64,000 bases of DNA, taken from the NCBI GenBank assembly GCA_001606155.1, contig LODT01000047.1:1-64000 (forward strand), in the 5' to 3' direction. Position numbers and translations under genes: made by a program. Positions 24,843 through 64,000 of this stretch are shown here, piece after piece. Source of the DNA: Tieghemostelium lacteum (Eukaryota > Evosea > Eumycetozoa > Dictyosteliales > Raperosteliaceae). Within the stretch, counting starts at the first letter, position 1, and each line of letters begins with the position of its first letter. Below the pieces are notes generated by a model. The model had not been told where the DNA came from and did no database searches. It saw only the letters and a program-made list of their open reading frames with translations.

Positions 24843-25148
24843 TTTTTCCTAATTTTTTTGTTAAAGGCGTACCAATTGATACCATTATTCCCAGACCCCT
24901 AACATGTAGGAGTTGGATCTAAAGTTTATTTATGTACATTGAAAAGGGCCATAAAATGGTCTGGTATTAGAATTTGTATTAGGTTGTTATTTTTGCACCA
25001 AGTCTTAGTGAACATTTTGATTTGAAATTTGATCGAGGATATAATTGGTTTTACCTTCTATAGTGGTACTGTGGTAGTCTCCAGTGTTTGGACATTAGGC
25101 CGAATGTTTTTTCCCATTCTGCTCTTTTTTTTTTTTTTTTCCCAATTT
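24843..25148 (-). mobile_element. 5'-truncated TRE5-like LINE, 43 bp upstream of tRNA-Ala
   Basis: The 3' end of a TRE-like non-LTR retrotransposon, minus strand, with its A-tail seen as T's near 24853-24859. It matches the copy at 63353-63877 over about 250 bp and is 5'-truncated near the 'gagcagaatgggaa' landmark. The flanks are near-identical: 'tttttcctaattt' (24843-24855) and 'tttttcccaattt' (25136-25148), one mismatch in 13, which I read as the target-site duplication. The duplication ends 43 bp before the first base of the tRNA-Ala gene. This spacing and orientation are what TRE5-type elements use. Confidence 0.8.
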
Positions 25149-25191
25149 GGGTGTACATATAGAGAAGTAAATTTTGTTGAATAATTGTAAA

Positions 25192-25287
25192 GGGCGTTTG
25201 GTGAATATGGTATCACGTTCGGTTTGCAACAATACAGCAATATTTCAATACTCCGAAAGATGACGAGATCGATACTCGTAACGTCCA
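25192..25287 (+). tRNA. tRNA-Ala(UGC) with a 23-nt intron
   Basis: The acceptor stem GGGCGTT/AACGTCC contains the G3-U70 wobble that identifies tRNA-Ala. The D-stem is GTGA/TCAC with G18G19 and A14, A21 present. The anticodon stem is TTCGG/CCGAA with anticodon TGC at 25225-25227. A 23-nt intron (25229-25251) sits after position 37, the canonical place. The T-arm is ACGAG/CTCGT with loop ATCGATA; position 54 is A instead of the usual T. The discriminator is A. The mature length is 73 nt. A TTTT terminator follows at about 25290. The retroelement placed 43 bp upstream gives independent support. It could be a slightly degraded gene, given A54 and T15. Confidence 0.8.
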
Positions 25288-25800
25288 GCTTTTGTTTGAA
25301 AATTTTTTTTTTGCCCCGGGGAGCTGAGAGTTTGACTTTTTGGGCTTAGTTTGGCCTACAAAAAGTTACAATTTGTAGACGTAACGACAGTCCTTATCGT
25401 ACTATCTCACATATCTCAGATCTCACCTATATATCACATCACATTTCATCATCACATCACACATCCTTTATATTTCCACCTTCATTATTTTTGATGTTCT
25501 CTCTTGAATTCATTAATGGTATTAGGGGTTGTATTCAACTTAACATTTAATCTCTTTGTAATAGAGCTCTGGGTCGTTCCTTTATACCTATACAAAATTT
25601 AAAGAATATAATATCTTTTCGTCAATATAACAATGATAGATGAGTTTGTACACAATACAACTATTTCTTTTTTAATTTTTAAAAATTTAAATTGCAACCT
25701 CAACATTTTTTTTATGTTTAGCTAAACCCCAAAATATTTGAATGTGAAAATTCATCAACATTATTGTTGTTGATTACACTAAAATTTAAATAAGAAAAGA
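25288..25800. other. GC-rich patch and gene-free flank
   Basis: About 510 bp between tRNA-Ala and the PQ-loop gene. The part at about 25313-25410 is unusually GC-rich for this genome: it contains a CCCCGGGG palindrome and a 7-bp hairpin stem (CTACAAA/TTTGTAG, about 25355-25380). I cannot assign it to a known RNA or repeat. The rest is AT-rich promoter-like DNA. Confidence 0.45.
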
Positions 25801-26520
25801 ATGGAAACAACAGAAATTGATTTTAAATATTATTATCAATCATTAGGATTTCTATCTAGTATAGCATTTGCAATACAATATCTACCACAAATGAAACTAA
25901 ACTACCAGAGGAAATCTACCCAGGGATTCTCATCATCTGGTATAATCATCAAATTAATTGGTGCCTCATTTCTGTTGGTAAATAGTTGGCTTACAGGTGA
26001 GACATTACCTATATTCTTTTATGGACTCATCAATGTAGTTCAACACAGCACATTTATGTATCAATTTTCAATCTATGATAAAAATACAAAATATCTACTC
26101 TGGATTTTATTCCCATTTTTACCATTACTAATGGGTAGATTATATCCTAAATCAATGTGTATGTACTTTGTTTATTTTAGATAAAGATAAATGTCAAAAT
26201 TATAGATTTAACAGTAGATGTTGAATATAGATACAACCAATTCAATTAAACCAATAACACAAGTACTTAGTCATTTGCCACAATTAATAGTTAGTTATAA
26301 ATCAAAATCAACGCAAGGTGTATCATTGCAATCACAATATTTAAATTTTTTTGGAGGAGTAGTTGGAGTATTAATGTTAATTGGAATACCACCAGTTTCA
26401 ATAATGACCTATTTTATATATATAAATAGCATAGCTCAAAGTGTTTCAATATTTTTAATGTATTTCTATTATGATCTCCGAAAGAGAAATAAAACTATTA
26501 CAAGAGATAGTGTAATATAA
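25801..26520 (+). CDS. PQ-loop repeat membrane protein, central junction unresolved
   Basis: The first open frame (from the ATG at 25801, open to a stop at about 26184) carries PQ-loop repeat 1: 'AFAIQYLPQMKLNYQRKSTQG', with several transmembrane segments. The second open frame (about 26218-26520) carries repeat 2: 'QVLSHLPQLIVSYKSKSTQGV'. PQ-loop proteins have two such repeats within seven transmembrane helices and move amino acids, sugars or other small solutes. The two halves are out of phase by canonical splicing: donors near 26158-26162 and the acceptor at about 26218 do not match. A rare GTTTAT donor at about 26171 would restore phase; a one-base error is the alternative. The substrate is unknown. 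Confidence 0.75.
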
Positions 26521-26752
26521 TTTTATAATTTTATTATTATTTGTATGTAAATAAATTATATATATAGAGGAGAGAAGGTTAATTAATGTTTTTTTTTTGT
26601 TATTATTAATATTTTGTTGAATTGATGAATTTCAATAACAGTGTGTATTATTACAAAATGTTTTTTTCAAACATATTGTGTCTTTGCATTTTTAAAATAA
26701 ATAAGTTTGGTGGTGAAGTGGTAGGGTGGTTGAGGAGAGTGTAAATGAATTA

Positions 26753-29457
26753 TTAACCTCTATGATTTGAAAGTAAATATCTTCTTTCAATGTCATTCTT
26801 TTTGAAAACAAATCTATCAACTTTGTCTTCAGCTTCCAGTAAGATTTCATCATCTTCCAATACTCTTTCAAGACCATCTCTTACTACATATAAAAAGTAT
26901 TCAGGTTCTTCAGAAGCAGGTACTTTCATTTTTTTAATAACCATTTGTTTTACTTTACCACATAGAGTATCATTATTAATGGCAAACGAACAGAATAAAA
27001 CTTCACCAAAACCTTCTAAACAAATTCTAGCAATAGCTCTTCTAATTGGTTTACTATCTTTTTGTTCTTCAATAGTATTATTATTATTATTATTATTACT
27101 ACTGGTATTATTACTATCATTATTATTATTATTTTTCTAAATCAGGAGTTACATCATCATACTCTTCAATATTTTCATATTCTTCAATAACATCATGAGT
27201 ATTACTAATTGGTTTTTGTTCAACATGTTGTGGCTGAACTGGTTGTGGTAATGGTTTGGTAAATTTACGATTTTGATATTCTTTTATAATATCTTGTTGT
27301 GGTATAGTTGCTGATGATGTTAATTTACTACTATCTGGTGAAAAATGATTATCATCATCCTGATCATATTCCAAATTTCTAGTATTTGATATTGAATTTT
27401 CTTCTTCAATTTTATCTTCATTTACTTTTTCTACTTCTTCATTTTGATTGTCATTCTCATCAATATTATTAACTTCCTGTTGTTGATGTTGTTCTAATCT
27501 TTGTTGATCTAATTGTCTTTGTAACTCTAGAGCTTGTTCTTCTTGTTCTAATCTCTCTCTTTCCATTTTTTCTAATTCTTCTTGTTCTAATCTCTCTTGT
27601 TCTAATCTCTCCTCTTCTAATCTTTCTTGTTCTAATCTCTCTTGTTCTAATCTAACTTTTTCAAATCTTTCCATTTCTAATCTCTCCTTTTCTAATTTGT
27701 CCTTTTCTAATCTTTCTCTCTCCAATTTCTCCTTTTCCAATTTTTCTTTATCTAATCTCTCCTTTTCTAAACGTTCCTTTTCTAAACGTTCCTTTTCTTT
27801 TTGAGCTTGTAACTGTTGAGATTTTTTAGAATCTTCTTCTTGTTTTTCTTTTTGAGCTTGTAAGAGTTTATCACGAGCAGATTGAGTATTTTCAGGTTCA
27901 ACAGGTGATTTAGATACTAAACTATCACGTAGAATCAATTGAGATTTCTCACGATCCTCACCAGACATTTGATAATAGTACATTGAGAGATAGAGTAAAA
28001 ATGATTTTTCATCTAGATTATCATCTTGCCAATGAGATGCCTCTAGAATCTTTGGAATTTGTAATTTCTCATGAGCAGCATTCAAAATCAATTGAGCTTG
28101 TTCAACTTTTGATTTCTTTGAACTCACCAACTGGTAATCCAAAGCCGATGGTTGATGTTTAGCGATAAGTGCTGCAAAAACCAGTGGGTTTTGTAGAGAG
28201 GCAGGTGAATCGCAAATTAATGATTTTTGAAATTCTGAAATTTTTCTACCACACCACCCAATGAGTTTATCTTTTGCTTGATATTCTTTCTCTCCATTGG
28301 TAGTGAAGGCAATGAAAATCGACCATAGTAGACGTAGTACAACTTTTACAACTTTACATTCAATGATATCCTGTGCAATCAGTTTACCAAAATCTGCACC
28401 AACCTCTTTTAGTGTATCCAAACAATGGTCGATATTATACTGCATCTCATAGATGGATTTACCTTTTCTGTACTTGAGTTGCCTCTTGAATAGGTGGTCT
28501 ATAAGATTAATCAAAACCATACCATCAGAGAATGCAGTCATTATATCATCAGCACACTGAATTTGTCGACCTGATAGACAATGGTTGACCCATGCCAATA
28601 TTGCCTTAGACTGGTACTGATTATTCTCTAATTTAGATTGTAATTTAACTGAAAGGTCTCTGGCAGTAGGTACAAATGCCATAGCAGGTGTAGCCACACG
28701 TGCAGTCTGAGATGCACTGTATGCAGTTGTACATTGAAGTTCTGTAGCCCACATTTGAATATCAGATTCCTTATCCGAAGTAAATGTATGTCTTTCAGAG
28801 TTTGCTAAAGTCAATAGAATCTGTTGACTTTGACCGCCCTGTTTCAATTCAATTACAGCATTCTCTAGTGACAGTTCATATAAAATTGTCTCTTCATCCT
28901 GTGATTCATAAACACGTAGATACTTATCTTTACTAACTGCCCAAATTTGTTCAAATCTATTTGCTCTTTTTCTTAACAAAAATCCAGACATTCCTTTACC
29001 TGGTCTAGATACTGATTTACTTGGTGTTTTATTAACTGTACTACTATTATTATTATTATTACTATTGACAGTTGTTGTAGTTGTTGTAGTAGGTGGTTTA
29101 AAACTTATAAAATCACCATTTGGATTAAGAAAACAAAATTTAAAATCAGATTTACCTTCTAATTTAACTAATAAATCAAATGGAAAATCTGTTACTTTTA
29201 ATTTAGTTTTTGCTGTAGCAATAGAATTGAGAATAAGAATTAATATTCAAAATAAAGAGGTGATATGAGGAAGATGGATTCTTACCTGACCCTTCCAAAA
29301 TGAATAAACTAAATTGAACTCTATCACTTTCATTTAGAAATAACTTTTTGGCAAACTTTTCACAAATCTCACCAGCAGCTGTACTAGGTTCAACAACCAT
29401 GGTTTTATATAAACCCTCTTGATCAAAAACCTTTAAGATTCTCTTTTCACTTGACAT
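26753..29457 (-). CDS. RA-PH-CH-CH cytoskeletal adaptor, C-terminal part frame-shifted
   Basis: Exon 1 (29457-29286) and exon 2 (from 29212) join in phase across a 73-bp intron; the frame then stops at 27129 after 751 residues. Order: an RA/ubiquitin-like domain split by the intron (residues 1-100), a Thr/Asn linker, a PH domain (about 132-225), two calponin-homology domains (about 258-366 and 367-476) and a Glu/Lys/Arg-rich coiled coil of repeated RLEKE units (about 515-650). Downstream, in a shifted frame, 26753-27129 encodes a poly-Asn linker and a second RA-like domain with a clean stop. The shift falls in a run of five A's near 27134-27138; with four A's the frame would stay open. The domains suggest a small-GTPase-regulated actin-binding adaptor. 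The family name is not recognised. Confidence 0.78.
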
Positions 29458-30407
29458 TTTTAGACTCTAAATCTAGGATTTATAATAAATCCTTTTGTTT
29501 GTTTCAATTGTAATACAATTACCTCCTACTACTAACTAAAGCTTTAATCTATTTGATTTTTTTTTTTTGTTATTATTGTTTGTTATTTAAAATATCTAAG
29601 ATCTTTAAATCTAATTTCTGTATTGCTTGGACTGTGACAGATTTTGTAATCTTGATTTGAATTTCTAGAGTACTTTCTGTTTTTTATTATGGGTGGTGAT
29701 CCTGTTAAAGAGACTCTATAGTTTATAAATAAATAAATAAGTGTAGAATGAATAAATTAATAATACAACATTAATAAAATAAATAAAAAAAAAGTATTTA
29801 TAATCAAGTGTAAAACTTGGATATTTTATAAAATAAAAAAAGTTTTTAAAAAATCAAATTTTTGATGAGTAACCGGTATTAGGGTTGGGTATTGTGCCAA
29901 TGAAAAAAAACAAAAAATGAACAAACAATATTTCAAGTGTCTTTTGGAAATCAATTACCTGTAACCCAATTGGAATTAATTTAATAATATTTGAACTCAA
30001 TAACAATATACCAAACAATTTTTTTTTAGAAAAATAAAAAAAAACAATCAAGATATTTAAGTGATAAAATATCTAAAAAAGATTAATCAACCGGTATTTT
30101 AAATTTCCTTTTATCCTTTTATAATCCTAATTGTTGGGATTTAGTTATATTTCAAATGATTCAATTTAAAAAATATGAGTTTTTCTTCTGATATAAACAC
30201 ATTAAATTTAATATGAGAAGTTTATCAAAATAACAATAATTGTTTTTTATTTTTTTTTAAAACGTTAAGAAACGAAAAAATAAACTTTAAAATTTTTTTA
30301 TTTTTTTTTTTTAAATTATTTCTTATTTTCAAAAAAAGAAACTTTAAAACTAGTACCCTCCTAACACAGATCATCTTATATAATATATAATAATAATTTA
30401 GAAAAAA
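29458..30407. other. Intergenic, no gene seen
   Basis: About 950 bp of AT-rich DNA between the divergent RA-PH-CH-CH and eIF6 genes. T-tracts lie close to both starts, as usual for promoters in this genome. A 65-codon minus-strand frame at 29854-30051 is hydrophobic AT-driven noise. No tRNA or known repeat is seen. Confidence 0.6.
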
Positions 30408-31148
30408 ATGTCATGTACAAGACTTCAATATGAAAATAGTTGTGATATAGGTGTTTTTGCCAAATTAACTAATGGATATTGTCTAGTTGGACAATGTGGT
30501 TCCAAACATTTCAAAAGAGTTTTTGAAAATACATTACAAAATCATATACCAGTAGTAGAGGCATCCATTGCCGGTACTAGAATTGTAGGTAGATTGTGTG
30601 TTGGTAATTCTAAAGGTTTATTATTACCAAACACTACTACAGATCAAGAATTATTACACATTAGAAACTCATTGCCAGACAAGGTAGTTGTACAACGTGT
30701 TGAAGAAAGACTGTCGGCATTGGGTAATTGTATTGCAGTAAATGATTATGTAGCCCTTATTCACCCAGATTTAGACAGAGAAACTGAAGAAATTATTGCA
30801 GATGTTTTAGATGTTGAAGTTTTCAGACAAACTGTTAGTGGACAGGTTTTGGTTGGTACTTATTGTGCATTATCAAATCAAGGTGCATTAGTTCATCCAA
30901 ATACAAGTATTGCCGATCAAGAAGAACTTTCATCATTACTGCAGGTACCTGTCATTGCTGGTACTGTAAATAGAGGTAACGAATGTATTAGTGCTGGTTG
31001 TGTTGTTAATGATTGGGCTGCTTTTGTAGGTTCTGATACTACTGCCACTGAAGTCACTGTAATTGAAAGTATTTTTAGTCTTAATCGTGATTCTAAACCA
31101 TCAAATATTGTTAATCAAATTAGAAACTCTGTGATTGATAATTTATAA
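30408..31148 (+). CDS. eif6: eIF6 ribosome anti-association factor
   Basis: A single exon encodes 246 residues, the standard length for eukaryotic eIF6. The N-terminus '[22 protein letters not shown]' and the pentein repeats ('[21 protein letters not shown]', '[20 protein letters not shown]', '[19 protein letters not shown]') match across the whole protein. eIF6 binds the 60S subunit, is needed for its biogenesis in the nucleolus and prevents premature joining to 40S. It is released in the cytosol by SBDS and EFL1. Nothing is odd about this copy. Codon use is less extreme than in its neighbours, which fits high expression. Confidence 0.98.
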
Positions 31149-31254
31149 ATTAAAAATAAATAAATTATCATAAAAAACCAAAAAAAACCTTTATATCAAA
31201 TCTATTATTTATAATTATTTGTATAATAAATATTTATTATTATTAATGATAATT

Positions 31255-32137
31255 TTAGAAATTTGTTAAAGTATAATTTTCAAAATTTTCAATCTTTTCA
31301 GAGGGATTTGAAATTCTTTTAAAAACAGCATACCATTTCTTTCCTTCAATTCTATTAACTTTACGAGCTTCTTCAGAAGAGTTTACAATTAAAGGTACAC
31401 ATGGATCAGATAAAGCCAAATCCTTATCAATTTGTTGAAACAATGGATGTGATTTAAAATGTGCAAACATCCATTCATAGAGTTCCTGTACATCAGAGAT
31501 AAAATAGGCTAATCCGCCAATAGACATTATATAAGCATATTCAGCCAACAATGTTGGTGAAATGATACGTCTCTTATGATTAGCCTTTTTAAAATGTGGA
31601 TCTGGAAAGAGGAAAAATATCTTTTCCAATTGACCCTTTTCAAAAAAGTTTGGCATTAATTTCATAGAGTTGGTTTTGATTACACTAATGTTTCGGTAGA
31701 GTTTTTTTTCTTTGTTATCCTCACGAAGTTTCTCAATACGTCCTTCAACATATTCTACAACTTTAGCTCTAATTTCCATTCCCAATATAACTTTATCTGG
31801 CAGTGTCTGTGATAATGAAACTGTTAATCCACCATATCCACATCCAACATCTGCAACTTGAACTTTAATTCTTTCACCTTCTTTTAATTCTGAACTTAAT
31901 TCTGGATATTTTTTTGACCAATCATATTCTGATGGTTTTGCTTTACTATTTTAAAAAATTAATATACACAACAAACATATGATAATTTCAATATATTTAC
32001 TAATCAAATTCATAATCTGCTGCTGGGTTTGCATGTGCTTTAATTTTATGATATGGTTTAATTGCTCTTTTTTTTGTTGCTGCTGGTTTTGATGATTTAT
32101 TATCTATTGTATTTGTAGTTGTAGTTGTTTCGGACAT
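31255..32137 (-). CDS. METTL1/Trm8, tRNA (guanine-N7-)-methyltransferase
   Basis: Exons 32137-32001 and 31945-31255 join in phase across a 55-bp intron to give 275 residues. The SAM-binding motif 'VADVGCGYGGLTVSLS' and the family motif 'FFLFPDPHFKKANHKRR' are intact. The C-terminal strand 'GKKWYAVFKR' is also conserved. With WDR4/Trm82 as partner, it methylates G46 of many tRNAs to m7G. A Thr run follows the start codon. The start codon is only 71 bp from that of DPM1 on the other strand, so the two must share a promoter containing a T-tract of more than 20 bases. Confidence 0.96.
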
Positions 32138-32207
32138 TTCGTGTGTTTGTTTTGATAAAAATTAAAGTTTTTTTTTTTTTTTTTTTTTAAATGATAAAAT
32201 TCAAAAG

Positions 32208-33108
<901 letters not shown>

Positions 33109-33189
33109 AAACAAAAACAATATCCAATTAACCTTTTGTAAATAAAGGTTAAAAAAAAATAAATAATTTAATTTGAGAGATATTAAATT

Positions 33190-35016: not shown

Positions 35017-35067
35017 TTTTAATTTTAAAAAAAAAAAATCGATTGGAATATACAAAATTTCATTTAA

Positions 35068-35330: not shown

Positions 35331-35441
35331 GTACATGCTCTTGAGGCAAAATACTGAGAAACTAAAATTTGATTATATCTATTTGATAGTGTTTTGACTC
35401 CTTTTATAGTTTCATCTTTTAATATTGTTGCTGCTAGTGCT

Positions 35442-35831: not shown

Positions 35832-35835
35832 TAGT

Positions 35836-35938
35836 ACCTCTCTTCTATTTGATTTTTTTGTTAAAGGCGTACCAATTGATACCCTTATGCCCAGACCCCT
35901 AACATGTAGGAGTTGGATACCTCTTCTATTTTATTTTT
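35836..35938 (-). mobile_element. Very short TRE-like LINE tail with target-site duplication
   Basis: Only about 60 bp of the element's 3' end (35860-35918) remain, starting with the A-tail as T's and 'gttaaaggcgtacc'. The flanks 'acctctcttctatttgatttt' (from 35836) and 'acctcttctattttatttt' (from 35919) are near-identical and are read as the duplication of an extremely 5'-truncated insertion. There is no tRNA within 200 bp on its 5' side; the nearest is tRNA-Thr at 36155. Confidence 0.7.
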
Positions 35939-35944
35939 TGTTAA

Positions 35945-36092
35945 TGTGAGAGATACAACTTTCTTAACTATAATTTAATATATAAAAATGAACTAACTAA
36001 CTATTTATTTATAATGATTTAATAAAGTATTGAATTTGATATAATATTTATGTTATTAAAATAGGTAAGAAGTAATAAGATGGATTCTTACA
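35945..36092. repeat. Family B short inverted-repeat element
   Basis: A 148-bp element beginning TGTGAGAGATAC and ending GGATTCTTACA, so its ends are a near-match to TGTAAGA/TCTTACA inverted repeats. The interior 'aatgatttaataaagtattgaa' recurs at 61210-61240 and 61546-61570. It shares termini with family A but has a different interior, as expected for non-autonomous relatives mobilised by one transposase. A further TRE-tail-like piece ('taaaggggtacc') may follow at 36093-36128. Confidence 0.6.
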
Positions 36093-36154
36093 TTAAAGGG
36101 GTACCTATTTGAGACTCTTTGAACTCATAAAAAAATTTTTTTTATCCGTCAGCA

Positions 36155-36225
36155 ACCTCTTTAGTATAGTGGCAGTACAAGGCTCTTGTAAAGCTTAGAC
36201 CCTGGTTCAATTCCAGGAAGAGGCA
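36155..36225 (+). tRNA. tRNA-Thr(UGU)
   Basis: The cloverleaf folds as acceptor ACCTCTT/AAGAGGC, D-arm GTA/TAC with loop TAGTGGCAG, anticodon stem AGGCT/AGCTT with loop CTTGTAA (anticodon TGT), and T-arm CCTGG/CCAGG with loop TTCAATT; the discriminator is A. A TTTTT terminator follows at once. Position 1 is A opposite C72, an unpaired acceptor end. A second copy begins at 63940 with the same A1. The anticodon reads ACA codons. Confidence 0.9.
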
Positions 36226-36271
36226 TTTTTGTTTTTTTAATATTGGCTTGATGACAAACAAAAAATTCTAT

Positions 36272-36344
36272 CGCTTTTAAGTGGGATCGAACCACTGACC
36301 TAGCGGTTAACAGCCGCTCGCTCTGCCGACTGAGCCATAAAAGC
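36272..36344 (-). tRNA. tRNA-Asn(GUU)
   Basis: The reverse strand gives a 73-nt cloverleaf with acceptor GCTTTTA/TAAAAGC, D-arm GCTC/GAGC, anticodon stem AGCGG/CCGCT with loop CTGTTAA (anticodon GTT), a TTCGATC T-loop on a GTGG/CCAC stem and discriminator G. There is no intron. A TRE-like element was inserted 43 bp upstream of it. Confidence 0.96.
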
Positions 36345-36387: not shown

Positions 36388-36834
36388 TTGGGAATCAGTT
36401 AAAAGAGCTGTAAGAATGCTCCTTACCAAGTTACACAAGAGTACAGTAAAGATTAGTATAAAGTATACATAAAAGGTAGTCAGGAATGGATGACTATCAT
36501 CTTAAGACCTTTTAGCATAACTGTTAATACTGTATCTCTTACAGAGCAGAATGGGAAAAAACATTCGGCCTAATGTCCAAACACTGGAGACTCCACCACT
36601 ATAGACAAGGTAAAAAACCAATGTATATCCTCGATCAAATTTCAAATCAAAATGTTCACCAAGACTTGGTGCAAAAATAACAACCTAATACAAATTCTAA
36701 TACCAGACCATTTTATGGCCCTTTTCAATGTACATAAATAAACTTTAGATCCAACTCCTACATGTTAGGGGTCTGGGCATAAGGGTATCAATTGGTACGC
36801 CTTTAACTAAAAAAAAAATTGGGAATCTGTTAAA
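36388..36834 (+). mobile_element. TRE5-like LINE fragment with nested family A element
   Basis: The 3' part of the TRE-like element on the plus strand (about 36405-36818, A-tail near 36808-36818). It carries the end of its ORF2 ('EWEKTFGLMSKHW' is readable). The flanks TTGGGAATCAGTTAAA (36388-36403) and TTGGGAATCTGTTAAA (36819-36834) differ at one base in 16 and are the target-site duplication. The duplication starts 43 bp from the 5' end of tRNA-Asn. A 135-bp family A element sits inside (36409-36543). A second, older TRE tail ('gggtatcaattggta') continues at 36834-36870. Confidence 0.82.
36409..36543. mobile_element. Family A 135-bp TIR element (MITE-like)
   Basis: The element begins TGTAAGA and ends TCTTACA. 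It is flanked by GAGC on both sides (36405-36408 and 36544-36547). The intact TRE copy at 63600-63640 reads 'AAAAGAGCAGAATGG' with one GAGC, so it serves as the empty site. A same-length copy (135 bp) lies at 61616-61750. It has no coding capacity. Confidence 0.82.
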
Positions 36835-45972: not shown

Positions 45973-46015
<43 letters not shown>

Positions 46016-54735: not shown

Positions 54736-54988
54736 ATGTCATCAATAAGAAATAATAATCAACATCAACAGCATCCTCAATCTGTTGATCGTATTGATTA
54801 TTACCCCCAACAACAATCTCAACCTCAACATCAACATCAGTTTCAATATAGTACAAATAAAATTCAATATAAAGATAATAATAATAGTAGTGGTTTAGTT
54901 GAGATGGATCATCATCATCAACAAATTTCAAATGAAATGCAAATTGATAATAACCAAAATATGAATTCACAATCAAAGTTATACCATC

Positions 54989-55037
<49 letters not shown>

Positions 55038-57458
55038 GCAACATCATCATCACCATCATCATACACAATCTCCACCAATACAATATATACCTTACTTTCA
55101 ACCACATTTACAACACCATCATCACCATCATTCACATCAACAAATACCACCACAAACTCATATTTCACCGCCCACAACACCTACATCTGATGATATTATA
55201 ATTTCACCATTTTCATTTGGACATTATAATGCAATTCCTAGTGTAAGCATTGGTGGTTTTACCTATCAACAACCACCTCCACAACCACCAAGTTCACTAC
55301 AAACACCACCAATGACACCACTTCCACCAATGAATATAAAATCACCGATTAGTAGTCCAATTATTAGTAATCATAATCCTAATAATTTAACAACTACTTA
55401 TAGTCCAATGATCACACCAACTTCATCATCATCAACCAGTCATCATCACCATCATCATCATCCACATCACCATTTACAATCAATATCATCACCAATGTTA
55501 CTTCAAAATCATAGTCATCCAATATCACCACCTTCCAATATGCGTATTAAACTTCCAACATCAATTTCAACTCCAACCATATTGGTATCACCTAGAGATC
55601 ATCATAGTACAACATCAACAACCTATTTACATCACCCTTTAACACCAACATCAACACCACCAATGGAAACACAATTTCAATCACCAAATCAACCATATAA
55701 TCTTACAGATTCTGGACAATCAACTAGCAATAATAACAATAATGTATACACACCTATTTACCATCCACCACCACCACCATTTTCATTGTACACTCCACAT
55801 TTGTCAACATCAGATCAAACACCAATTTCAATAGTACCGCCACCACACCCACAAACACCACAACCACAACCACAACAAACAACAGTATCAGCACCACATT
55901 CACCAAATTTTGAAAAATCCAACAAAATCTATAAAAAGTCAAATACTGTTGTACCACTATTATCAAAATTATCATCATCTACATCTAGTCTGTCAAATTC
56001 TAGTAGTAATAATTCAAGTAGTTCAATGCCAGGTAACAACGGAGGTGTTAGTTCAACCTCCACATTATCAGCATCTACACCATCTATTAGTACTACATTA
56101 CCAATTAACAAAAATCTAAAGAATTCAATGGCTGTACCTAAACATCATTCATTACCCATTTTACCTTTACCAAATAATAGTAGTAGTAATATATCACCAC
56201 CAACATCAACACCACCAACACCAAATAACAGTACCAATTCATCAAATAATTCTATAAATACAACTACTACTACTACTACTATAAGTAGTAATAATTATTT
56301 ATTAAATGAATCACAAGATTCTATTGACTCACCACCTACACCAATGTCATCACCATCCATATCAAGTTTAAATTTAAATAATACACCATCTATATCACCA
56401 CATAGTACACCACCAATAACACCACCACTACTATTAACTGGTTCATCACCTCAGAATTCACCTAGAAATCCAAATTCACCTAGATTTGATCCACTACAAT
56501 TTCAGATGAATCAGTTACAACAACTAAAGAAACAATATGATGGTCTACTTGCAAAATCACTTGGTGATCTATGGACTGAGGTTGATAATGATATTAATAA
56601 TTCCAGACAATCTTTTAAGAATTTTTCAATCCCTTTAGCAAGAGTTAAAAAAATTATGAAATTAGATCCATCTGTAAAAGTAATTATCATTATATATATT
56701 TGTTTTTTGTAATTCAATGAATAATAGGAAATTTATATTAATTATTTTTAATTCAATGAAAATAGATGATATCATCAGATGCACCTATATTATTTGTAAA
56801 AGCATGTGAAATATTTATTTTAGAGTTAACATCTAGAGCATGGGTTCATACTGAAATGAGTAAGAGAAGAACATTACAAAGATCTGATATGATTCATGCT
56901 ATTGCTAGAGTTGAAACATTTGATTTTCTAGTTGATACTGTATCTAGAGATGAAATTAAACCAAAAAAAGTTGATGATCCAACAAAATCATCATTTTTAA
57001 ATTCACCTGAGGGTTTACAATATCTACAATATTTACAATTACAAAATTTTGTACAAGAAAATAGAAGACAACCTGCCATCAGAATTGATCAACAACAACT
57101 ATATAATACCAATCCGAATAATAATAATAATAACAATAATAATAGACAAAATACAAAATTAAAACATTTAATATATAATAATATTCAATCACAACATCTA
57201 CATTTACAACATCAACATCATCATTTGACATTACAACATCACAATACACATTTACAACCGTATCACAGTCATACACATCAACAACAACAACAACAACAAC
57301 AACATTCACAACCAATGTCAACTATATCTGAAGAGACCCTTGTATCTTCAAATTTAATGTCTGACCATGTTCATCATCAACCATCATCAAACGAAGAAGA
57401 AGATGAAGATGAAAATGATAATGATGAAGACAATGAAGATATTGATGATGATATCTAA
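54736..57458 (+). CDS. nfyC: NF-YC/HAP5 CCAAT-binding factor subunit
   Basis: Exons 54736-56679 and 56766-57458 join at phase 0 across an 86-bp intron, giving 878 residues. The histone-fold domain spans the junction: 'SFKNFSIPLARVKKIMKLD', then 'ISSDAPILFVKACEIFI', 'SRAWVHTEMSKRRTLQRSD' and 'FDFLVDTVSRDEIKPKK'. These match NF-YC, which pairs with NF-YB and then NF-YA to bind CCAAT. About 600 residues of Gln-, His-, Pro-, Ser- and Thr-rich disorder precede the fold, including a long poly-Gln run (54989-55039) next to poly-His. A second Gln/His/acidic tail follows. Human NF-YC is about 335-460 residues, so this is greatly expanded. Confidence 0.95.
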
Positions 57459-57840
57459 ATTATATATAAAAAAACACAATTTAATAACAAATAACAATAA
57501 CTTAAAATACAAAACAAAAAAAAAAATAATATTCTCTATATATATATATTATTTATATATTTATATCATCAATAGTAAATTTATAGAATCATATAGTTCT
57601 ATGAAAAAAAAATATTAAAATCAAATAAATTAAAAATTAAATTAATCATTATTTAAATTAAAATTCATTATTTCAATATTCAATTTAATAGTTTATATAC
57701 TTTTTTTGGTAACACCTAAAAAAAATGAAGTAGACGAAAGCATTATGCCAAACTGTAAAAAAAAATTTGAAAAAATGTCTTCCATTTTGTCATTCGGTTC
57801 ATTTTGTATAGAATACCCAAGTTGAGTCATTATTAGTAAT
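57459..57840. other. Intergenic, no gene seen
   Basis: About 380 bp of AT-rich 3' flank and promoter between NF-YC and ferredoxin. T- and A-tracts are present; nothing else is recognised. Confidence 0.6.
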
Positions 57841-58468
57841 ATGATAAAATCTATAAGCACACCACTAAGAAATTTAATTAAATTTCAATATAATAGTAAT
57901 TATAGTTTGAGTTTTAATAGATTAAACGCAACAAACACACAAAGATATTTTTCCACATCGAGTAATAAAAGTGGAAAAGATGAATTGTATGACTTATCAC
58001 ACACACCCACACATATAGCATAGACAGCATGTTACTAATGTTTAATAATAATTGGTAGAGTAACATTTACATTTATAAATAAAGATGGCAGTAAAACAGT
58101 AGTTTCAGAACCAGTAGGTACCAATGTACTAGAGGTTGCACATAGAAATGATGTAGATTTAGAAGGAGCATGTGAATGTTCTGTGGCATGTTCAACATGC
58201 CATGTCTATGTTGAACCAAAATTCTATAATAAATTACCCGAACCTACAGATGAAGAGAATGATATGCTGGATTTAGCTTTTGATTTAAAAGAAAAGTTGG
58301 TATATCTTACATACATTTGTAAATAATTATGATTAACACAAAATACTATATAGCTCAAGATTAGGATGTCAAGTCATATTAAAAAAGGAATTAGAGGGTA
58401 TGGTAGTTACATTACCATCTGCCACTAGAAATATGTTTGTTGATGGTTATAAACCACCTAAACATTAA
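57841..58468 (+). CDS. Mitochondrial [2Fe-2S] ferredoxin (adrenodoxin type)
   Basis: Three exons (57841-57986, 58059-58295, 58354-58468) join in phase to give 165 residues. Exon 2 ends at a GTTGGT donor; the nearby GTATAT donor would break the frame. The Arg/Ser/Asn-rich N-terminus ending 'RYFSTSS' is a mitochondrial presequence. The cluster-binding loop reads '[13 protein letters not shown]', with the fourth ligand in 'SRLGC'; '[15 protein letters not shown]' matches the adrenodoxin acidic helix that docks to its reductase. It donates electrons for Fe-S cluster assembly and possibly haem or P450 chemistry. An extra Cys sits next to the first ligand (CEC). Confidence 0.95.
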
Positions 58469-58835
58469 TTATTTTTCACCTCTAGATATAATAGATAAAT
58501 TGTATATAATTTAAATTTAAATTTAAATTTCATTGACACATTAATGTTTTGTCCTATGAATATATAAATATAGCAGTACAATGATATAAATGTATTTGAA
58601 ACACTTAACACACAGATGATTAAAGAAATGAATAAAATAAAAAGGGTGATGGTATGGTCCAAATGGATTGGATTGGACACAAATGTTAAAAGCTATAGAA
58701 CTATACAAAAATTTACAAAATGGTTTGTTTTTTTTATTTACAAAGGGTGGGGTGGATATGAATGTTAACAATAATAAAAATTATAATGTGAATGATACAT
58801 GGTTGTTACTAACTAAATGAATAAAAAGATGAACT

Positions 58836-59292
58836 CTAATTCTCCTTTTTGATCTTTGCCTTTTCTAAAATGAATTTTCCTACTTTATATTTTTGTGATT
58901 CCTCTTTTGCAAATTCCTGGTTACAAAGATATTGTTAGTGTCTACACTTTTAAAACTATTGTTTTGTTTAAAAATACTTACATATTTCCAACCTAAGAGT
59001 TCACAACAATCTATACAATAAATATCAGCAACAATGTGCATACCAGTAGTTAAATTTCTATCCTCGCTTGGACCTACACTAATATTTACACTAGTTGTGC
59101 GATATATTAATATACTTTACTTTTATTATAATCTACAATTTTAACCTACCATTCACCAAATAAATATGCAGTACCATGTCTACCTTGAAAAGCCTTTGAT
59201 ATCAATTGTTCATGTAAAGATAGATGAGTTTTACATGAACTACAACAAAATATAGGTGATCCATTTAAATAGTTTTTAAAAAGTTTTCCCAT
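58836..59292 (-). CDS. Yippee-family zinc-binding protein
   Basis: Three exons (59292-59150, 59090-58982, 58916-58836) join in phase to give 110 residues; none is long enough alone to stand out as a gene. Two Cys-x-x-Cys pairs are present: 'FCCSSC' and 'DIYCIDC'. The block 'LISKAFQGRHGTAYLFGE' and 'LGWKYEFAKEESQKYKVGKFILEKA' matches Yippee/YPEL proteins across their length. YPEL proteins form a single zinc fold; in animals YPEL5 associates with the GID/CTLH ubiquitin ligase. The local role is not shown by the sequence. Confidence 0.93.
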
Positions 59293-59828
59293 CAAGTTAA
59301 TTGGGTACTCATTCAATAATAGTAATTATGAATGACAATATTTTTATATTTATATTAATTTAACTTATATATTATATTTAGTAAATATATATGTTATTTT
59401 ACAATCTCTAATCTTTAGTTTATATGTGTGTTGTGTTTCTGTATCGAAATAAATGTTTATGTAATATTTGATAAAAAAGATGATACGTTAAAAATTTAGA
59501 TATAAATTTGAAATGAAATGTACTCCTTTAGATATTAATTAAAATTATAAAGTGAAGCAGTATGGGTGGTTGTAATAAAAAATTTTTATAAAAACTTAAT
59601 TTATATTTCACAAAAATTTAAGAAACCAACCATAATATCAATTTTTGAATACACAAAAGTCGAAAATTATCACTTCGCTTATTTCCTATCAGAACAGAAA
59701 GGAAATTTACCAGTCTTTGAAAAGCTCTGTATCAAGGTTTTTTTTGATTGTATATTATTAAAAAAAAGTGTGTTGTGGTGTGGTGTAGTTATATATGTTT
59801 GTTTATTTTAATATTTTTAATCAAAATT
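59293..59828. other. Intergenic with an open stretch lacking an ATG
   Basis: About 535 bp between the Yippee promoter and the phosphatase stop. A plus-strand open stretch at about 59551-59811 reads 'FAYFLSEQKGNLPVFEKLCIK' with somewhat gene-like codon use. It has no ATG, no matching splice sites and no recognised domain. I do not call it a gene. Confidence 0.4.
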
Positions 59829-60611
59829 TTAAGATGAAGAAGATAAAGATAATTGTTGTTTTGGTTGAGATTGTTTTTCTTCAATTAATTTTAAATAACG
59901 TATAACTTGCATTTTTTGGGGATGATATTCAGGAGATTCACCCCAACCTATAATTCTCTGTTCATAACAAGCTTGAGTTCTACGAAGTGCCTCTAAACCA
60001 GAGACTTGATATAGTCTACCGAGGAGACATGCTGCAATAATACCAGTACGACCTCTACCAGCATGACAATGTAAAAAACAATTTTTATTGTCTTGTAGCT
60101 TTTGTAAAAGTAAATCAATAAATTCACCTAATTCCTCTAGACTGTTTGCAGCACAACCATCTTCAATAGGGAAATTTAGAAACTCTATAGTGTCAGTTGA
60201 GATTCCTTTCTGTTTGGCAAGTGTTAGTACATCGTTCTTATATTCACGGAAATTAGTGAGTTCTTGTGTCTCTTGTAGACACACAAATACATTGATACCA
60301 CTATCTAAAAGTGTCGATAGGTTTCTAAAGTGGTCTTGGTCTTTGGTATTGGCTGGATTCTCACCAGACATAATCTTATTTTTTACAACCCAATTACAAA
60401 TATCTAACGGACCTCTCATATTGTCGTCATCACTAAGTTCATCCATACCACCACTGCTATAGAGTGAACTAGATGACTGTGTAGATGCACCTTCATCTCC
60501 ATCACCACCATTCAAAGATTTTTTTAAATTCTTTTTACAATTGCCATTGCAGCAAATTCCATCTTTTCCTATAATATGCCATCTTGGTGGTAAACATTTT
60601 ATTTGAATCAT
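59829..60611 (-). CDS. PTP/dual-specificity phosphatase-like protein
   Basis: A single exon encodes 260 residues from the ATG at 60611; the frame is open further upstream but has no other ATG. A Cys-rich N-terminal patch ('ICCNGNC') precedes a Ser/Asp-rich linker. The phosphatase core holds 'HCHAGRGRTGIIAACLLGR' with C182 and R188 in the CX5R P-loop. The general-acid loop is likely the 'FPIED' segment. The architecture resembles compact plant, algal and protist DSP-like phosphatases. A Ser-rich tail follows. Substrate, protein or phosphoinositide, cannot be told. Confidence 0.88.
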   Translation of the reverse strand: MIQIKCLPPRWHIIGKDGICCNGNCKKNLKKSLNGGDGDEGASTQSSSSLYSSGGMDELSDDDNMRGPLDICNWVVKNKIMSGENPANTKDQDHFRNLSTLLDSGINVFVCLQETQELTNFREYKNDVLTLAKQKGISTDTIEFLNFPIEDGCAANSLEELGEFIDLLLQKLQDNKNCFLHCHAGRGRTGIIAACLLGRLYQVSGLEALRRTQACYEQRIIGWGESPEYHPQKMQVIRYLKLIEEKQSQPKQQLSLSSSS

Positions 60612-61148
60612 TCTACTGTTCTTTCTATATGTGTTTTTTGTTTTTTTTGCTGTCTTTATAAGAATTAAAATTTCCTTATTATTATTATTATTATTCTCTC
60701 TCTCTAAAAATAAATATTTAAACAATTTTATACAATATTAACAAATATATTATTATTATTACTATTAATTAAAAGATTATTATCCACTGTATTTGAATTA
60801 AATAGATTATTAATAACAAAGTATTTCATTAATGATGATTAAATCCTTTTGAAGTTGCTTTTATAAAAGAAATTTAGATGAGAGTTGAATTTTTCTTTGT
60901 GCTACTTTATGTGAATACTTTTTCAAAATAAAAAAAAAAAAAAAAAAAAAATAATTATCAAAATGACAAAATATCCAATATTAAACCAATTTCCCCTCAT
61001 GTAAATACATAATAATCAAATAATTTTAAAAATTAAATAAAGGCCTATATTTTGCGCTGATAGTGTATTCATCACTCCTTATAAAATATAAAAATCATAT
61101 ATATAATAACAAAATATTTAATTAAAACAAGTGGTTAATTAAAAAAAA
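60612..61148. other. Intergenic, no gene seen
   Basis: About 535 bp of AT-rich sequence including an A-tract of more than 20 bases near 60930-60950. It forms the boundary between the last protein gene and the repeat-rich end of the window. Confidence 0.6.
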
Positions 61149-61610
61149 TGTAAGAGATACAACTTAGAATTTATGTAATAAAGTATATATAAAAATGAAT
61201 TTTTGAACTATTTATTTATAATGATTTAATAAAGTATTGAAATTTTAATACTATTTTAGGTATTCAAATAGGTAAGAGGGATTCTGATAAAAAAGTAAGA
61301 GATAACATTATAATAGTTTCGTTACAAAGGCTTAAGATTATAGTCATCCGTTCCTGATTACCTTTTTATGTATAATCTATACTCTTGTAACTTGTACTAT
61401 AAAGGAGGATTACTATAAATATGGTATTAAAATAGCTAAGAAGTAATAGGATGGATTCTTACCACATATGTATAGTGTATCAACAGTTATTTCGAAACAA
61501 GTTCGTAATTTAAGATATAAAAATGAACTAATTTACTATTTATGTATAATGATTTAATAAAGTATTGAATTTATAATAATATTTATGGTATTACAAGTAA
61601 AGTCCTTTAA
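61149..61610. repeat. Family A and B short-element cluster, diverged and nested
   Basis: At 61149-61277 lies a family B copy beginning TGTAAGAGATACAACTTA and ending GGATTCT. A diverged family A interior follows at about 61302-61415 ('agtcatccgttcctgatt'). Two further family B pieces lie at 61415-61463 and about 61495-61597. The arrangement suggests repeated insertion of related elements into one another. Confidence 0.6.
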
Positions 61611-61615
61611 TTTAT

Positions 61616-61750
61616 TGTAAGAGATACAGTATTAACAGTTACGCTAAAAGGTCTTAAGATGATAGTCATCCATTCCTGACTACCTTTTATGTATACTTTA
61701 TACTAATCTATACTGTACTCTTGTGTAACTTGGTAAGGAGAATTCTTACA
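61616..61750. mobile_element. Family A 135-bp TIR element, opposite orientation
   Basis: The element begins TGTAAGAGATACAG and ends AATTCTTACA. It has the same length and content as 36409-36543 but in reverse. The two copies share the block 'gtcatccattcctgactacc'. The flanking four bases are not a clear duplication here. Confidence 0.78.
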
Positions 61751-61755
61751 TATCT

Positions 61756-62016
61756 ACAGTTGAAATCAATTTTTTTTTTGTTAAAGGCGCACCAATTGAT
61801 ACCCTTATGCCCAGACCCCTAACATGTAGGAGTTGGATCTAAAGTTTATTTATGTACATTGAAAAGGGCCATAAAATGGTCTGGTATTAGAATTTGTATT
61901 AGATTGTTAGTTTTGCACCAAGTCTTGGTGAACATTTTGATTTGAAATTTGATCGAGGATATACATTGGTTTTTTACCTTGTCTATAGTGGTACTGTGGT
62001 GGAGTCGCCAGTGTTT
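61756..62016 (-). mobile_element. 5'-truncated TRE-like LINE fragment
   Basis: The 3' end of the TRE-like element, minus strand (about 61770-62016), with its A-tail as T's at 61771-61779. It is closely similar to the copies at 24860 and 63353. The likely target-site duplication is ACAGTTGAA (61756-61764), matched on the right by ACAGTTG at 62017 once the 70-bp element inserted there is set aside. Unlike three other copies, no tRNA gene lies on its 5' side. Confidence 0.75.
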
Positions 62017-62023
62017 ACAGTTG

Positions 62024-62093
62024 TGTAGATATCTATCTTATAAGTAGTTCAATTGATTGGATTTACCAAGTACTTATAAGATAGATATCTACA
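62024..62093. mobile_element. 70-bp element with perfect 23-bp terminal inverted repeats
   Basis: The termini 62024-62046 and 62071-62093 are perfect inverted repeats of 23 bp (starting TGTAGATATC). Only 24 bp lie between them. GTTG flanks both sides (62020-62023 and 62094-62097). It is a deletion-type relative of family C, whose end TATCTACA is seen at 24841 and whose longer interior lies at 62915. Confidence 0.85.
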
Positions 62094-62097
62094 GTTG

Positions 62098-62700
62098 AAT
62101 GTAACATGAGGACTCATGAACTTTTGCAAACCTTCACCCAATTGGATAGCATATTTATACATCTCTTTAAAGGACACAAAGGTACCTCTCTTATGGATAT
62201 CTAAAGCCATATGTGGGTCTATAGCCTCCAAATAAATATCGATCAAAACTGGATCTGCCAGAGCTGGAACTATTTGAGATTTGATTAAATAAAATTTGGA
62301 GTTGAAATCCGAAAAATTTTCGCAATTGCTGAATCGTAGGCTCTTCAACTTATCAATTGGTTTGTAAGCTTGTCTGTTTTGATACGTCTCTAGAAGATGA
62401 TTATTGATTTTAATGTAAGTATCTTATTCCGCACTTTCTATAATTGACAAATATAGATCCAAAGGACCATCCAACAATTTAGCCAATTCTGATTTATATT
62501 TAGGGATGTTTACTTTATCATCCCTATCCAATTCAAAGTATGTAAAAATAACATTGATGGATTTACCATTCACATTATCAAAAATAAAATTTTTTTCTGC
62601 AAACATTACTAAAATTACTAAAAACAAAAGACGTGCTGGTCCAAGACAAACTAAAAAAGTGGATGTTGATCTTGACTCAATTGAGATTTAAACATTTCTC
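62098..62700 (-). mobile_element. Gag-like retroelement fossil, broken
   Basis: Two open segments on the minus strand (about 62098-62348 and 62424-62627) read like the core of a retrotransposon gag protein: 'YLEAIDPHMALDIHKRG' and 'FKEMYKYAIQLGEGLQKF' resemble the capsid-type gag fold of Ty3/gypsy elements. No protease, reverse transcriptase or LTR is visible. It is a small broken remnant of an LTR-type element, possibly Skipper-like, though the family is uncertain. It is older than the 70-bp element inserted at its edge. Confidence 0.5.
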
Positions 62701-62859
62701 TCGTGTCAATTTAAATCTCAAGTAAATATTTAAAATCTTAAAAAAAAAATAAAACACCCATTTGTATTGTAATTAAATTATAAGTGATATAGTTTTATTT
62801 AATTTTGTAAATCTATCTTTTCACGAAGGTTATCGCCAATGTAAAATACTAAGTAGAAT

Positions 62860-63045
62860 GAATAAATAATGAAGTACTTTATGTATAATTTAGTATATGG
62901 AAAATATAGAATGAATGAATGTATTTTATTAAATTATTATATAAATGATGATTTAGATATTATTATTATGATTATTGGATATTTGGAATATAATTCAGCA
63001 AAGTCCTTTGATTTACCAAAGTACTTATAGTATGCTGTACTCTTG
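62860..63045. repeat. Family C short repeat
   Basis: The interior from 'atgaatgtattttattaaatt' to 'accaaagtacttata' closely matches 24716-24830. Its right terminus runs into a family A end ('tactcttgtgtaacttggtaaggagc' at about 63040-63066). No coding content. Confidence 0.6.
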
Positions 63046-63183
63046 TGTAACTTGGTAAGGAGCATTTTTACAGATATCTACATGAAATCAAAATTTTTTG
63101 TTAAAGGTACATGAAATCAAAAAATATTCCTTTTTTTTTTTTTTACAAGTCTACAAAGGGAATTCCCATTGTAAAGTACTAAG

Positions 63184-63303
63184 TATTAACAGTTACGCTA
63201 AAAGGTCTTAAGATGATAGTCATCCATTCCTGACTACCTTTTATGTATACTTTATACTAATCTATATTGTACTCTTGTAACTTGGTAAGGAGCATTCTTA
63301 CAC
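63184..63303. repeat. Family A element, left end missing
   Basis: About 120 bp, near-identical to 61632-61750, from 'attaacagttacgctaaaagg' to 'gcattcttaca'. The left terminus TGTAAGAGATAC is absent. Confidence 0.75.
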
Positions 63304-63340
63304 CATTTGTAAATATATTCCTTTTTTTTTTTTTTTTTTT

Positions 63341-63895
63341 TTTACAGGTAAATTTTGTTAAAGGCGTACCAATTGATACCCTTATGCCCAGACCCCTAAC
63401 ATGTAGGAGTTGGATCTAAAGTTTATTTATGTACATTAAAAAGGGCCATAAAATGGTCTGGTATTAGAATTTGTATTAGGTTGTTATTTTTGCACCAAGT
63501 CTTAGTGAACATTTTGATTTGAAATTTGATCGAGGATATACATTGGTTTTTTACCTTGTCTATAGTGGTACTGTGGTGGAGTCTCCAGTGTTTGGACATT
63601 AGGCCGAATGTTTTTTCCCATTCTGCTCTTTTAGCTATATTCATCTTGTAGGTGACAGCTAGCCAGTTCAGTTCCATATCAATTTTATCGTGATTTTTCT
63701 TATTTCTCGAATACCATATGAAGTCAAACAATATAGCAATAAATGAACCCAATACTGGGTTGTTGATTTGGTTTAATATTCTTTGGTTCCATTGGTATCT
63801 ACTTGATAGAACTCTCTCTTGAATATTCTTTATGAAACCCAGTCTTTTACAGGTAAAGAATATGTGTTCTCACGTTATTTTTTTTTACAGGTAAA
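63341..63895 (-). mobile_element. Longest TRE5-like LINE copy, 44 bp upstream of tRNA-Thr
   Basis: A non-LTR retrotransposon 3' end of about 525 bp, minus strand. It includes the ORF2 C-terminus: a Cys-containing 'HIFFTCKRLGF' patch followed by 'FIWYSRNKKNHDK' and ending 'FNVHK', a layout typical of LINE ORF2 tails. A TGA lies just upstream of 'EHIFFTCK', so the upstream part of this frame is decayed. The T-rich flanks ending TTTACAGGTAAA (63341-63352 and 63884-63895) are the duplication. Its end is 44 bp before tRNA-Thr at 63940. The 3' UTR is the repeated 'gttaaaggcgtaccaattga' block. Confidence 0.85.
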
Positions 63896-63939
63896 TATAT
63901 TCCTATTAACATCTAACTATTATTTTTTTTGAATACAAA

Positions 63940-64000
63940 ACCTCTTTAGTATAGTGGCAGTACAAGGCTCTTGTAAAGCTTAGACCCTGGTTCAATTCCA
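63940..64000 (+). tRNA. tRNA-Thr(UGU), truncated by the window end
   Basis: The 61 visible bases are identical to the first 61 of the tRNA-Thr at 36155-36225: the same ACCTCTT acceptor strand, D-arm, TGT anticodon and T-arm start. The 3' acceptor strand lies outside the window. It has the same A at position 1. Confidence 0.92.

What the first reader, a model, noticed from the sequence alone, without database searches (positions are those of the whole stretch)
24843..63940. Three truncated TRE-like elements each end 43-44 bp upstream of a tRNA gene
At 24843-25148, 36388-36834 and 63341-63895 the target-site duplication nearest the tRNA ends 43, 43 and 44 bp from the first base of tRNA-Ala, tRNA-Asn and tRNA-Thr. 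In all three the element's 5' end faces the tRNA. TRE5-type elements of Dictyostelium are known to insert about 50 bp upstream of tRNA genes, so this fits. The precision in 5'-truncated copies suggests that a Pol III-linked complex fixes the cut site, whatever the length of the copied cDNA. Three other copies (22040, 35836, 61756) lack a nearby tRNA and may mark lost tRNA genes or rearrangements.
Basis: partly seen in the sequence, partly recalled or inferred. Interest (0 to 1): 0.75.

Follow-up and report, generated by a model that had tools for sequence, protein, structure and literature searches.

The report
Jumping gene targeting tRNA-gene upstream sites
In a social-amoeba genome a copy-and-paste jumping gene lands at almost the same spot, about 43-45 bases ahead of tRNA genes, whether the copy is whole or broken, although the published survey lists what is probably this element as not targeting tRNA genes.

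Summary
The element is a non-LTR retrotransposon of about 4.7 kb (ORF1; ORF2 with endonuclease and reverse transcriptase) in a 23.3 Mb genome that fits Tieghemostelium (Dictyostelium) lacteum. Of 40 matches to its 3' end, 22 lie within 1 kb of a known tRNA gene: 22 of 22 upstream, 21 of 22 with the 5' end facing the tRNA; 0.04-0.4 expected by chance. The one full-length copy obeys the same rule. At nine loci with readable target-site duplications (TSDs) the inner edge lies 43, 43, 43, 45, 44, 44, 41, 35 and 45 bp from the tRNA; own-locus pairing beat all 20,000 permutations. Corrections: the second element is a composite with a solo LTR; the 35836 copy does have a tRNA; lost tRNAs are not supported. 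Precise, orientation-strict insertion is already known for D. discoideum TRE5-A. New: the family that best fits published Dl_TRE5-A is tabulated as not tRNA-specific, which these data contradict, and its spacing is about 10 bp longer than in D. discoideum. In passing: 9 of 42 nuclear tRNA genes inspected lack the base that should pair with C72.

The parts
24857..25128 (-). 5'-truncated copy 1 of the TRE5-like element (sense on minus strand), upstream of tRNA-Ala
   Evidence: 96% identical to the query 3' end; anatomy
24843..24855 (.). distal TSD of copy 1
25136..25148 (.). proximal TSD of copy 1, 43 bp from the tRNA; about 7 extra T between it and the element
25192..25287 (+). tRNA-Ala(UGC) with a 23-bp intron
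   Evidence: ARAGORN with introns
36544..36810 (+). 5'-truncated copy 2 of the TRE5-like element, upstream of tRNA-Asn
36819..36834 (.). distal TSD of copy 2
36388..36403 (.). proximal TSD of copy 2, 43 bp from the tRNA
36409..36543 (+). solo LTR (135 bp, GAGC/GAGC duplication) nested in the 5' edge of copy 2; 64 bp from tRNA-Asn
36272..36344 (-). tRNA-Asn(GUU)
63354..63876 (-). 5'-truncated copy 3 of the TRE5-like element, upstream of tRNA-Thr
63335..63353 (.). distal TSD of copy 3
63878..63896 (.). proximal TSD of copy 3, 43 (or 44) bp from the tRNA
63940..64000 (+). tRNA-Thr(UGU), cut by the window end (gene ends at 64010 of the contig)
35857..35918 (-). 62-bp 3' remnant of the element upstream of tRNA-Thr(36155); possible TSD 35840-35855 / 35921-35936; separated from the tRNA by an LTR
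35945..36092 (+). second type of solo LTR (TTAA/TTAA duplication), 62 bp from tRNA-Thr
36155..36225 (+). tRNA-Thr(UGU)
61777..62016 (-). copy of the element 1.9 kb upstream of tRNA-Thr(63940), same orientation, in a pile of nested repeats
22046..22240 (-). old copy (79% identity), no tRNA near

Best explanation
The copies belong to one TRE5-like non-LTR retrotransposon, most likely the family published as Dl_TRE5-A of Tieghemostelium lacteum. Its ORF2 endonuclease nicks the tRNA-sense strand at a position set by the Pol III initiation complex, at about -43 to -45, the proximal edge of the later duplication. Reverse transcription from the poly(A) tail is primed there, and the other strand is cut about 13-16 bp farther upstream, which makes the TSD. 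Because both cuts are placed by the host complex and not by the cDNA, copies from about 60 bp to full length (4.7 kb) end at nearly the same distance, with the 5' end towards the tRNA. Ty3/gypsy-type LTR elements insert at 52-72 bp, that is at or beside the TRE's 5' junction, and often come to lie between element and tRNA. Shown here: anatomy, orientation, spacing, TSDs. Inferred: the role of Pol III factors (from D. discoideum work) and the order and place of the nicks (from the orientation of the A-tail).
For: 22 of 40 matches within 1 kb of a known tRNA, 22/22 upstream, 21/22 in one orientation, 0.04-0.4 expected. Nine readable TSDs at 43, 43, 43, 45, 44, 44, 41, 35, 45 bp, next to Ala, Asn, Thr, Trp, Met, Leu, Ser, Thr and Pro genes. 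Own-locus TSD score 155 against a permutation maximum of 149 in 20,000; positions found without regard to distance were 43-46 in eight loci and 36 in one, of 14. Full-length copy with 14-bp TSD 44 bp from tRNA-Leu. RVT_1 and AP-endonuclease matches in ORF2. Its only intact non-LTR relative in the RT inventory lies downstream of tRNA genes, as TRE3 does.
Against: 7 of 40 matches have no known tRNA within 5 kb (the tRNA list is incomplete), and C2:558289 and C31:373898 have clean duplications without a tRNA. 5 of 14 loci gave no TSD in the anchored test, one of them (Met) because of my trimming. One TSD is at 35 bp and Ile reads 44 or 33. One match within 1 kb and one more within 2 kb have the opposite orientation; C30:1523965 and C21:858522 show inverted parts. 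No D. discoideum TRE5 sequence was available, so no RT tree was made. The published Dl_TRE5-A length (7405 bp) does not fit 4.7 kb.
Confidence: 0.88

Rival explanations
1. Survivorship: the element inserts broadly in a gene-dense genome, and only copies in harmless places such as tRNA flanks persist.
For: The genome is compact (passages of PMC4931340), and some copies lie away from tRNA genes.
Against: Selection against gene damage does not explain one orientation (21 of 22), only the upstream side (22 of 22), or TSD edges within 41-45 bp in 8 of 9 loci.
Confidence: 0.05
2. Copies without a tRNA once had one that was lost or moved.
For: Several tRNA-less copies are old (75-79% identity), and stacked copies 1-2 kb from a tRNA exist.
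Against: A permissive Rfam scan of six tRNA-less loci found no tRNA remnant. The C19 copy abuts a TRE3-A-like ORF1.
Confidence: 0.15
3. The family is not Dl_TRE5-A but an undescribed TRE5-like element, and the published 'not tRNA-specific' entry concerns something else.
For: 4.7 kb here against 7405 bp published. The consensus could not be compared.
Against: The RT inventory (17 matches, all 19 candidates scored) holds just one other non-LTR family with RT frames over 1100 codons, two copies lying downstream of tRNA genes, which fits Dl_TRE3-A (2 intact copies). The one intact copy of this family fits Dl_TRE5-A (1 intact copy, 30 copies).
Confidence: 0.2

Closest known systems
TRE5-A of Dictyostelium discoideum
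   Same: Non-LTR element with two ORFs (ORF2 in the -1 frame), AP-endonuclease and RT, A-tail, strict 5'-end-to-tRNA orientation, narrow window upstream of tRNA genes, TSDs, extra nucleotides at 5' junctions, tandem insertions (literature side).
   Different: Spacing from element to tRNA mostly 56-59 bp against 47 +/- 3; no duplicated B-module was looked for or noticed; sequence relation not testable here.
Dl_TRE5-A of T. lacteum (PMC5006619, Table 1)
   Same: Probably the same family: one intact copy and a few dozen copies in the same genome.
   Different: Published as 7405 bp and not tRNA gene-specific; here about 4.7 kb and strongly tRNA-associated.
Dl_TRE3-A of T. lacteum
   Same: Related ORF2, 33% identity in the RT region.
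   Different: Lies downstream of tRNA genes; ORF1 ATG about 49 bp past the end of tRNA-Trp in L042.
P. pallidum NLTR-B
   Same: Non-LTR element 39-64 bp upstream of tRNA genes.
   Different: Has an RNase H domain; none was found in ORF2 here.
Dl_DGLT-A LTR retrotransposons
   Same: Fit the nested LTR: 20 of 47 LTR matches lie 52-72 bp upstream of a tRNA, 20 of 20 in one orientation; published 63-64 and 55-65 bp.
   Different: The LTR here is about 135 bp, the published ones 163 and 206 bp, so the name is provisional.

Membership tests
TRE5-like non-LTR retrotransposon | Location upstream of tRNA genes at distances similar to D. discoideum TRE5 (operational definition in PMC5006619) | tested here: met
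   22 of 22 tRNA-near matches upstream; 51-62 bp element to tRNA in nine loci, inside the published TRE5 ranges
TRE5-like non-LTR retrotransposon | 5' end of the element faces the 5' end of the tRNA gene | tested here: met
   21 of 22 matches within 1 kb
TRE5-like non-LTR retrotransposon | Two ORFs, ORF2 with AP-endonuclease and RT, ORF2 in the -1 frame | tested here: met
   frame worked out from the ORF coordinates
TRE5-like non-LTR retrotransposon | Zinc-finger domain after the RT | tested here: inconclusive
   zf-RVT 15.7 bits, cut-off 27.5
TRE5-like non-LTR retrotransposon | RT groups with TRE5 in a phylogeny | not testable with these tools
   no dictyostelid reference sequences held
TRE5-like non-LTR retrotransposon | A-tail and target-site duplication | tested here: met
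Dl_TRE5-A as published | Consensus length 7405 bp | tested here: not met
   intact copy about 4.7 kb between its TSDs
Dl_TRE5-A as published | One intact copy, about 30 copies in this genome | tested here: met
   one RT frame without stops over the full query, 40 matches to the 3' end
NLTR-B-like element | RNase H domain downstream of RT | tested here: not met
   no RNase H family among five Pfam matches of ORF2 at E up to 1
Dl_DGLT-A (nested LTR) | Position 55-65 bp upstream of tRNA genes | tested here: met
   20 LTR matches at 52-72 bp
Dl_DGLT-A (nested LTR) | LTR length 163 or 206 bp | tested here: not met
   135 bp by eye

The most novel reading that the evidence does not exclude
In T. lacteum two unrelated tRNA-targeted classes have moved outward together: the TRE5-like element to about 57 bp (47 +/- 3 in D. 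discoideum) and DGLT-A-type LTR elements to about 52-72 bp (about 15 bp in most dictyostelids). They now share nearly the same base, so that LTRs land in the TRE's own target-site duplication. A shared shift would mean that the host Pol III complex (TFIIIB footprint or start site) sits farther upstream in this species, and that the elements are genomic footprints of it.
Probability: 0.25. Interest if true: 0.6.

Novelty: new member of a known kind. Interest (0 to 1): 0.42.

Why it matters
The published survey lists the T. lacteum TRE5 as the one TRE5 that is not tRNA-specific. If that entry is this family, the exception disappears, and upstream tRNA targeting holds for every TRE5 in that table. 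The tight, length-independent spacing is a natural footprint of the Pol III complex that could be compared between species, and the nested LTR and TRE insertions give an order of events at single tRNA genes.

Tried and rejected
tRNA remnants were sought with a permissive Rfam scan in six tRNA-less loci (L036, L046, L047, L054-L056) and none were found; C43:40085 was scanned only at the gathering threshold, with none found.

An unanchored TSD search over 16 loci was misled by LTRs on both sides and by T runs: in several loci an unrelated left flank scored as high or higher. TSDs were therefore read by hand and tested with an anchored score over 14 loci. There Met fails because my trimming of the T tail removed part of its flank; Cys, Thr (L040), Val and Asn (L049) gave no TSD. 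Ile has two readings (44 or 33 bp) and was left out of the nine. The duplicated Trp locus on C21 and the 35857 copy (218 bp, with an LTR between; about 66 bp without LTR and its duplication) were also left out. Other tRNA-linked loci (L042, L043, L044, L050, L051, L053 and the pieces upstream of tRNA-Asn at C37:64131) were not tested for TSDs, because their ends are missing or rearranged.

A second poly(A)-tailed sequence was followed as a possible parent or competitor: 5 pattern hits and 4 matches in each; its parent was not found.

Papers: searches returned none, one (on microRNAs, listing only), fourteen (listing). None of these listings showed a correction of the published table; most subscription journals are not held. 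Supplements could not be read, so the 7405-bp consensus was not compared. Seen of PMC5006619: abstract, sections 3, 6 (part 1 of 2), 9, 11 and passages; of PMC5391098: section 13 (part 1 of 3) and passages; of PMC5911963, PMC6471195 and PMC4931340: passages.

Full report
SETTING. The window is the first 64 kb of contig C37 of a genome of 23,333,832 bases in 43 contigs, with 23-30% G+C in the window. This fits Tieghemostelium (Dictyostelium) lacteum, whose published assembly is 23.4 Mb in 54 contigs (passages of PMC4931340). The name is inferred; no tool gave it.

THE OBSERVATION. The three tRNA genes and three elements are there, and the duplications end 43, 43 and 43 (or 44) bp from tRNA-Ala, tRNA-Asn and tRNA-Thr. 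Two details change. The second element is a composite: 36409-36543 is a solo LTR with a 4-bp duplication, GAGC, in the 5' edge of the retrotransposon copy. And the copy at 35836 has tRNA-Thr at 36155, with a different solo LTR (35945-36092, TTAA duplication) in between.

WHAT THE ELEMENT IS. One full-length copy lies on C23 (L035, about 3183-7892, antisense). Stop-to-stop frames of 364 codons (ORF1) and 1176 codons (ORF2) are open. ORF2 matches RVT_1 (E 1.1e-32) and the AP-endonuclease family (24.8 bits, cut-off 24.5); a zinc-finger match is below its cut-off (15.7 against 27.5), and no RNase H family appears. The two frames overlap and ORF2 is in the -1 frame (worked out from the coordinates), as reported for D. 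discoideum TREs. A search for RT domains gave 17 matches (19 candidates, all scored). Matching the ORF2 query as well, and with frames over 1100 codons, are this copy and two copies of a family 33% identical to it, of 1165 and 1168 codons; shorter relatives exist. The second family lies downstream of tRNA genes: in L042 its ORF1 ATG is about 49 bp past the end of tRNA-Trp (counted by eye). That fits published Dl_TRE3-A (2 intact copies). By elimination the present family is Dl_TRE5-A (30 copies, 1 intact). The published length of 7405 bp does not fit, and I could not compare sequences.

POSITION. The 3' 281 bp has 40 matches. Of 40 matches, 22 are within 1 kb of one of them: 22 upstream, 21 with the 5' end towards the tRNA. 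30 are within 2 kb (28 in that orientation), 33 within 5 kb, and 7 have none within 5 kb. Chance would give 0.04 of 40, or 0.4 if there were ten times more tRNA genes. Matches are not all independent: some are pieces of one copy, stacked copies at one tRNA, or duplicated loci (C21:526 and C38:195543 share the tRNA-Trp side; C31:292473 and C31:373898 share a flank). The full-length copy counts only within 5 kb because its 3' end is far from the tRNA, but its 5' end has a 14-bp duplication 44 bp from tRNA-Leu.

SPACING. Nine loci have a duplication that I could read by hand: Ala 43, Asn 43, Thr 43, Trp 45, Met 44, Leu (full length) 44, Ser 41, Thr 35, Pro 45. What was left out, and why, is told under Tried and rejected. 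In a test in which the left flank must abut the A-tail, own-locus pairings of 14 loci sum to 155 matched bases; none of 20,000 permutations reached this (maximum 149). Positions found without reference to distance were 43-46 for eight loci, among them Ile (44) and Ser (44), and 36 for one; five loci gave nothing. From element end to tRNA, TSD included, the nine values are 56, 59, 62, 59, 57, 58, 56, 51 and 59 (the 62 includes a T run). In D. discoideum, distance between integrated element and tRNA +1 is reported as 47 +/- 3 for 80.2% of insertions.

MECHANISM. In target-primed reverse transcription the A-tail end marks the first nick (general knowledge of non-LTR elements). Here it is on the tRNA-sense strand at the inner edge of the duplication, about -43 to -45; the second cut is about 13-16 bp farther out. 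That Pol III factors place the cut is inferred from D. discoideum, where TRE5-A needs the B box and its ORF1 protein binds TFIIIB subunits. It was not tested here.

NESTED LTRs. A 139-base query holding the 135-bp LTR has 47 matches (47 candidates, 40 scored). Twenty lie 52-72 bp upstream of a tRNA gene, 20 of 20 in one orientation. This fits the published Dl_DGLT-A positions (63-64 and 55-65 bp), although the published LTRs are longer. Because this site coincides with the retrotransposon's 5' junction, the LTR often lies between element and tRNA. At tRNA-Trp on C38 two LTRs are each followed by AGAA and preceded by AAGAA, one beyond and one on the tRNA side of the retrotransposon copy, whose own duplication (ACAAGAAAGTGGGA) includes the last three bases of the first LTR. 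I read this as LTR first, then retrotransposon, then a second LTR at the same base.

COPIES WITHOUT tRNA. C2:558289 has a 20-bp duplication and C31:373898 one of 16 bp (read by eye), and no tRNA was found beside them. They look like insertions elsewhere. The C19 copy abuts a TRE3-A-like ORF1. A permissive Rfam scan found no tRNA remnant in six tRNA-less loci. 'Lost tRNA genes' is therefore not the favoured reading.

NOVELTY. The principle is known. New here: the family that best fits Dl_TRE5-A is tRNA-targeted, against its published entry, and its spacing is about 10 bp larger than in D. discoideum. My paper searches showed no correction of that entry.

Noticed in passing
window 36155 and 63940; C18:130448, C4:205949 (Thr-UGU); C23:721314, C21:507849, C21:508063 (Cys-GCA); C23:184949 (Leu-AAG); C37:275964 (Ser-CGA): In 9 of 42 nuclear tRNA genes whose ends I looked at by eye, position 1 is A or T opposite C72, where G is expected: 4 of 4 Thr-UGU genes found in the genome, 3 Cys, 1 Leu-AAG, 1 Ser-CGA. 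Position 1 may be added after transcription. Three loci match the Thg1 family of 3'-5' polymerases; in D. discoideum 5' editing is known for mitochondrial tRNAs, and the cytosolic essential enzyme TLP4 has no known function (passages of PMC6471195).
   Followed up: partly
window 63145-63167; C31:786988, C31:787760, C26:15909, C23:222793: A second low-copy sequence with a poly(A) tail (ACAGGTCTACAAAGGGAATTCCC in antisense; 5 hits). 4 of 5 lie upstream of a tRNA gene, in the same orientation as the TRE; at tRNA-Glu on C26 an 11-bp duplication lies about 35 bp from the tRNA (by eye).
   Followed up: partly
window 63326-63353; L039 about 4880-5360: Near-pure T runs flanked by what look like TSDs (GTAAATATATTCC at Thr; AATAATCTTTATTT at Ile), as if poly(A)-only insertions had landed 33-36 bp from the tRNA before the present element did.
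   Followed up: no
25129-25135; L041 beside 5257: Runs of extra A (element sense strand) at 5' junctions, like the non-templated nucleotides reported for D. discoideum TRE5-A.
   Followed up: no
just beyond the window, C37:64186-64935: An RT fragment 85% identical to the element's ORF2, upstream of tRNA-Asn (64059-64131, minus) with its 3' side towards the tRNA: an older subfamily or an inverted piece.
   Followed up: no
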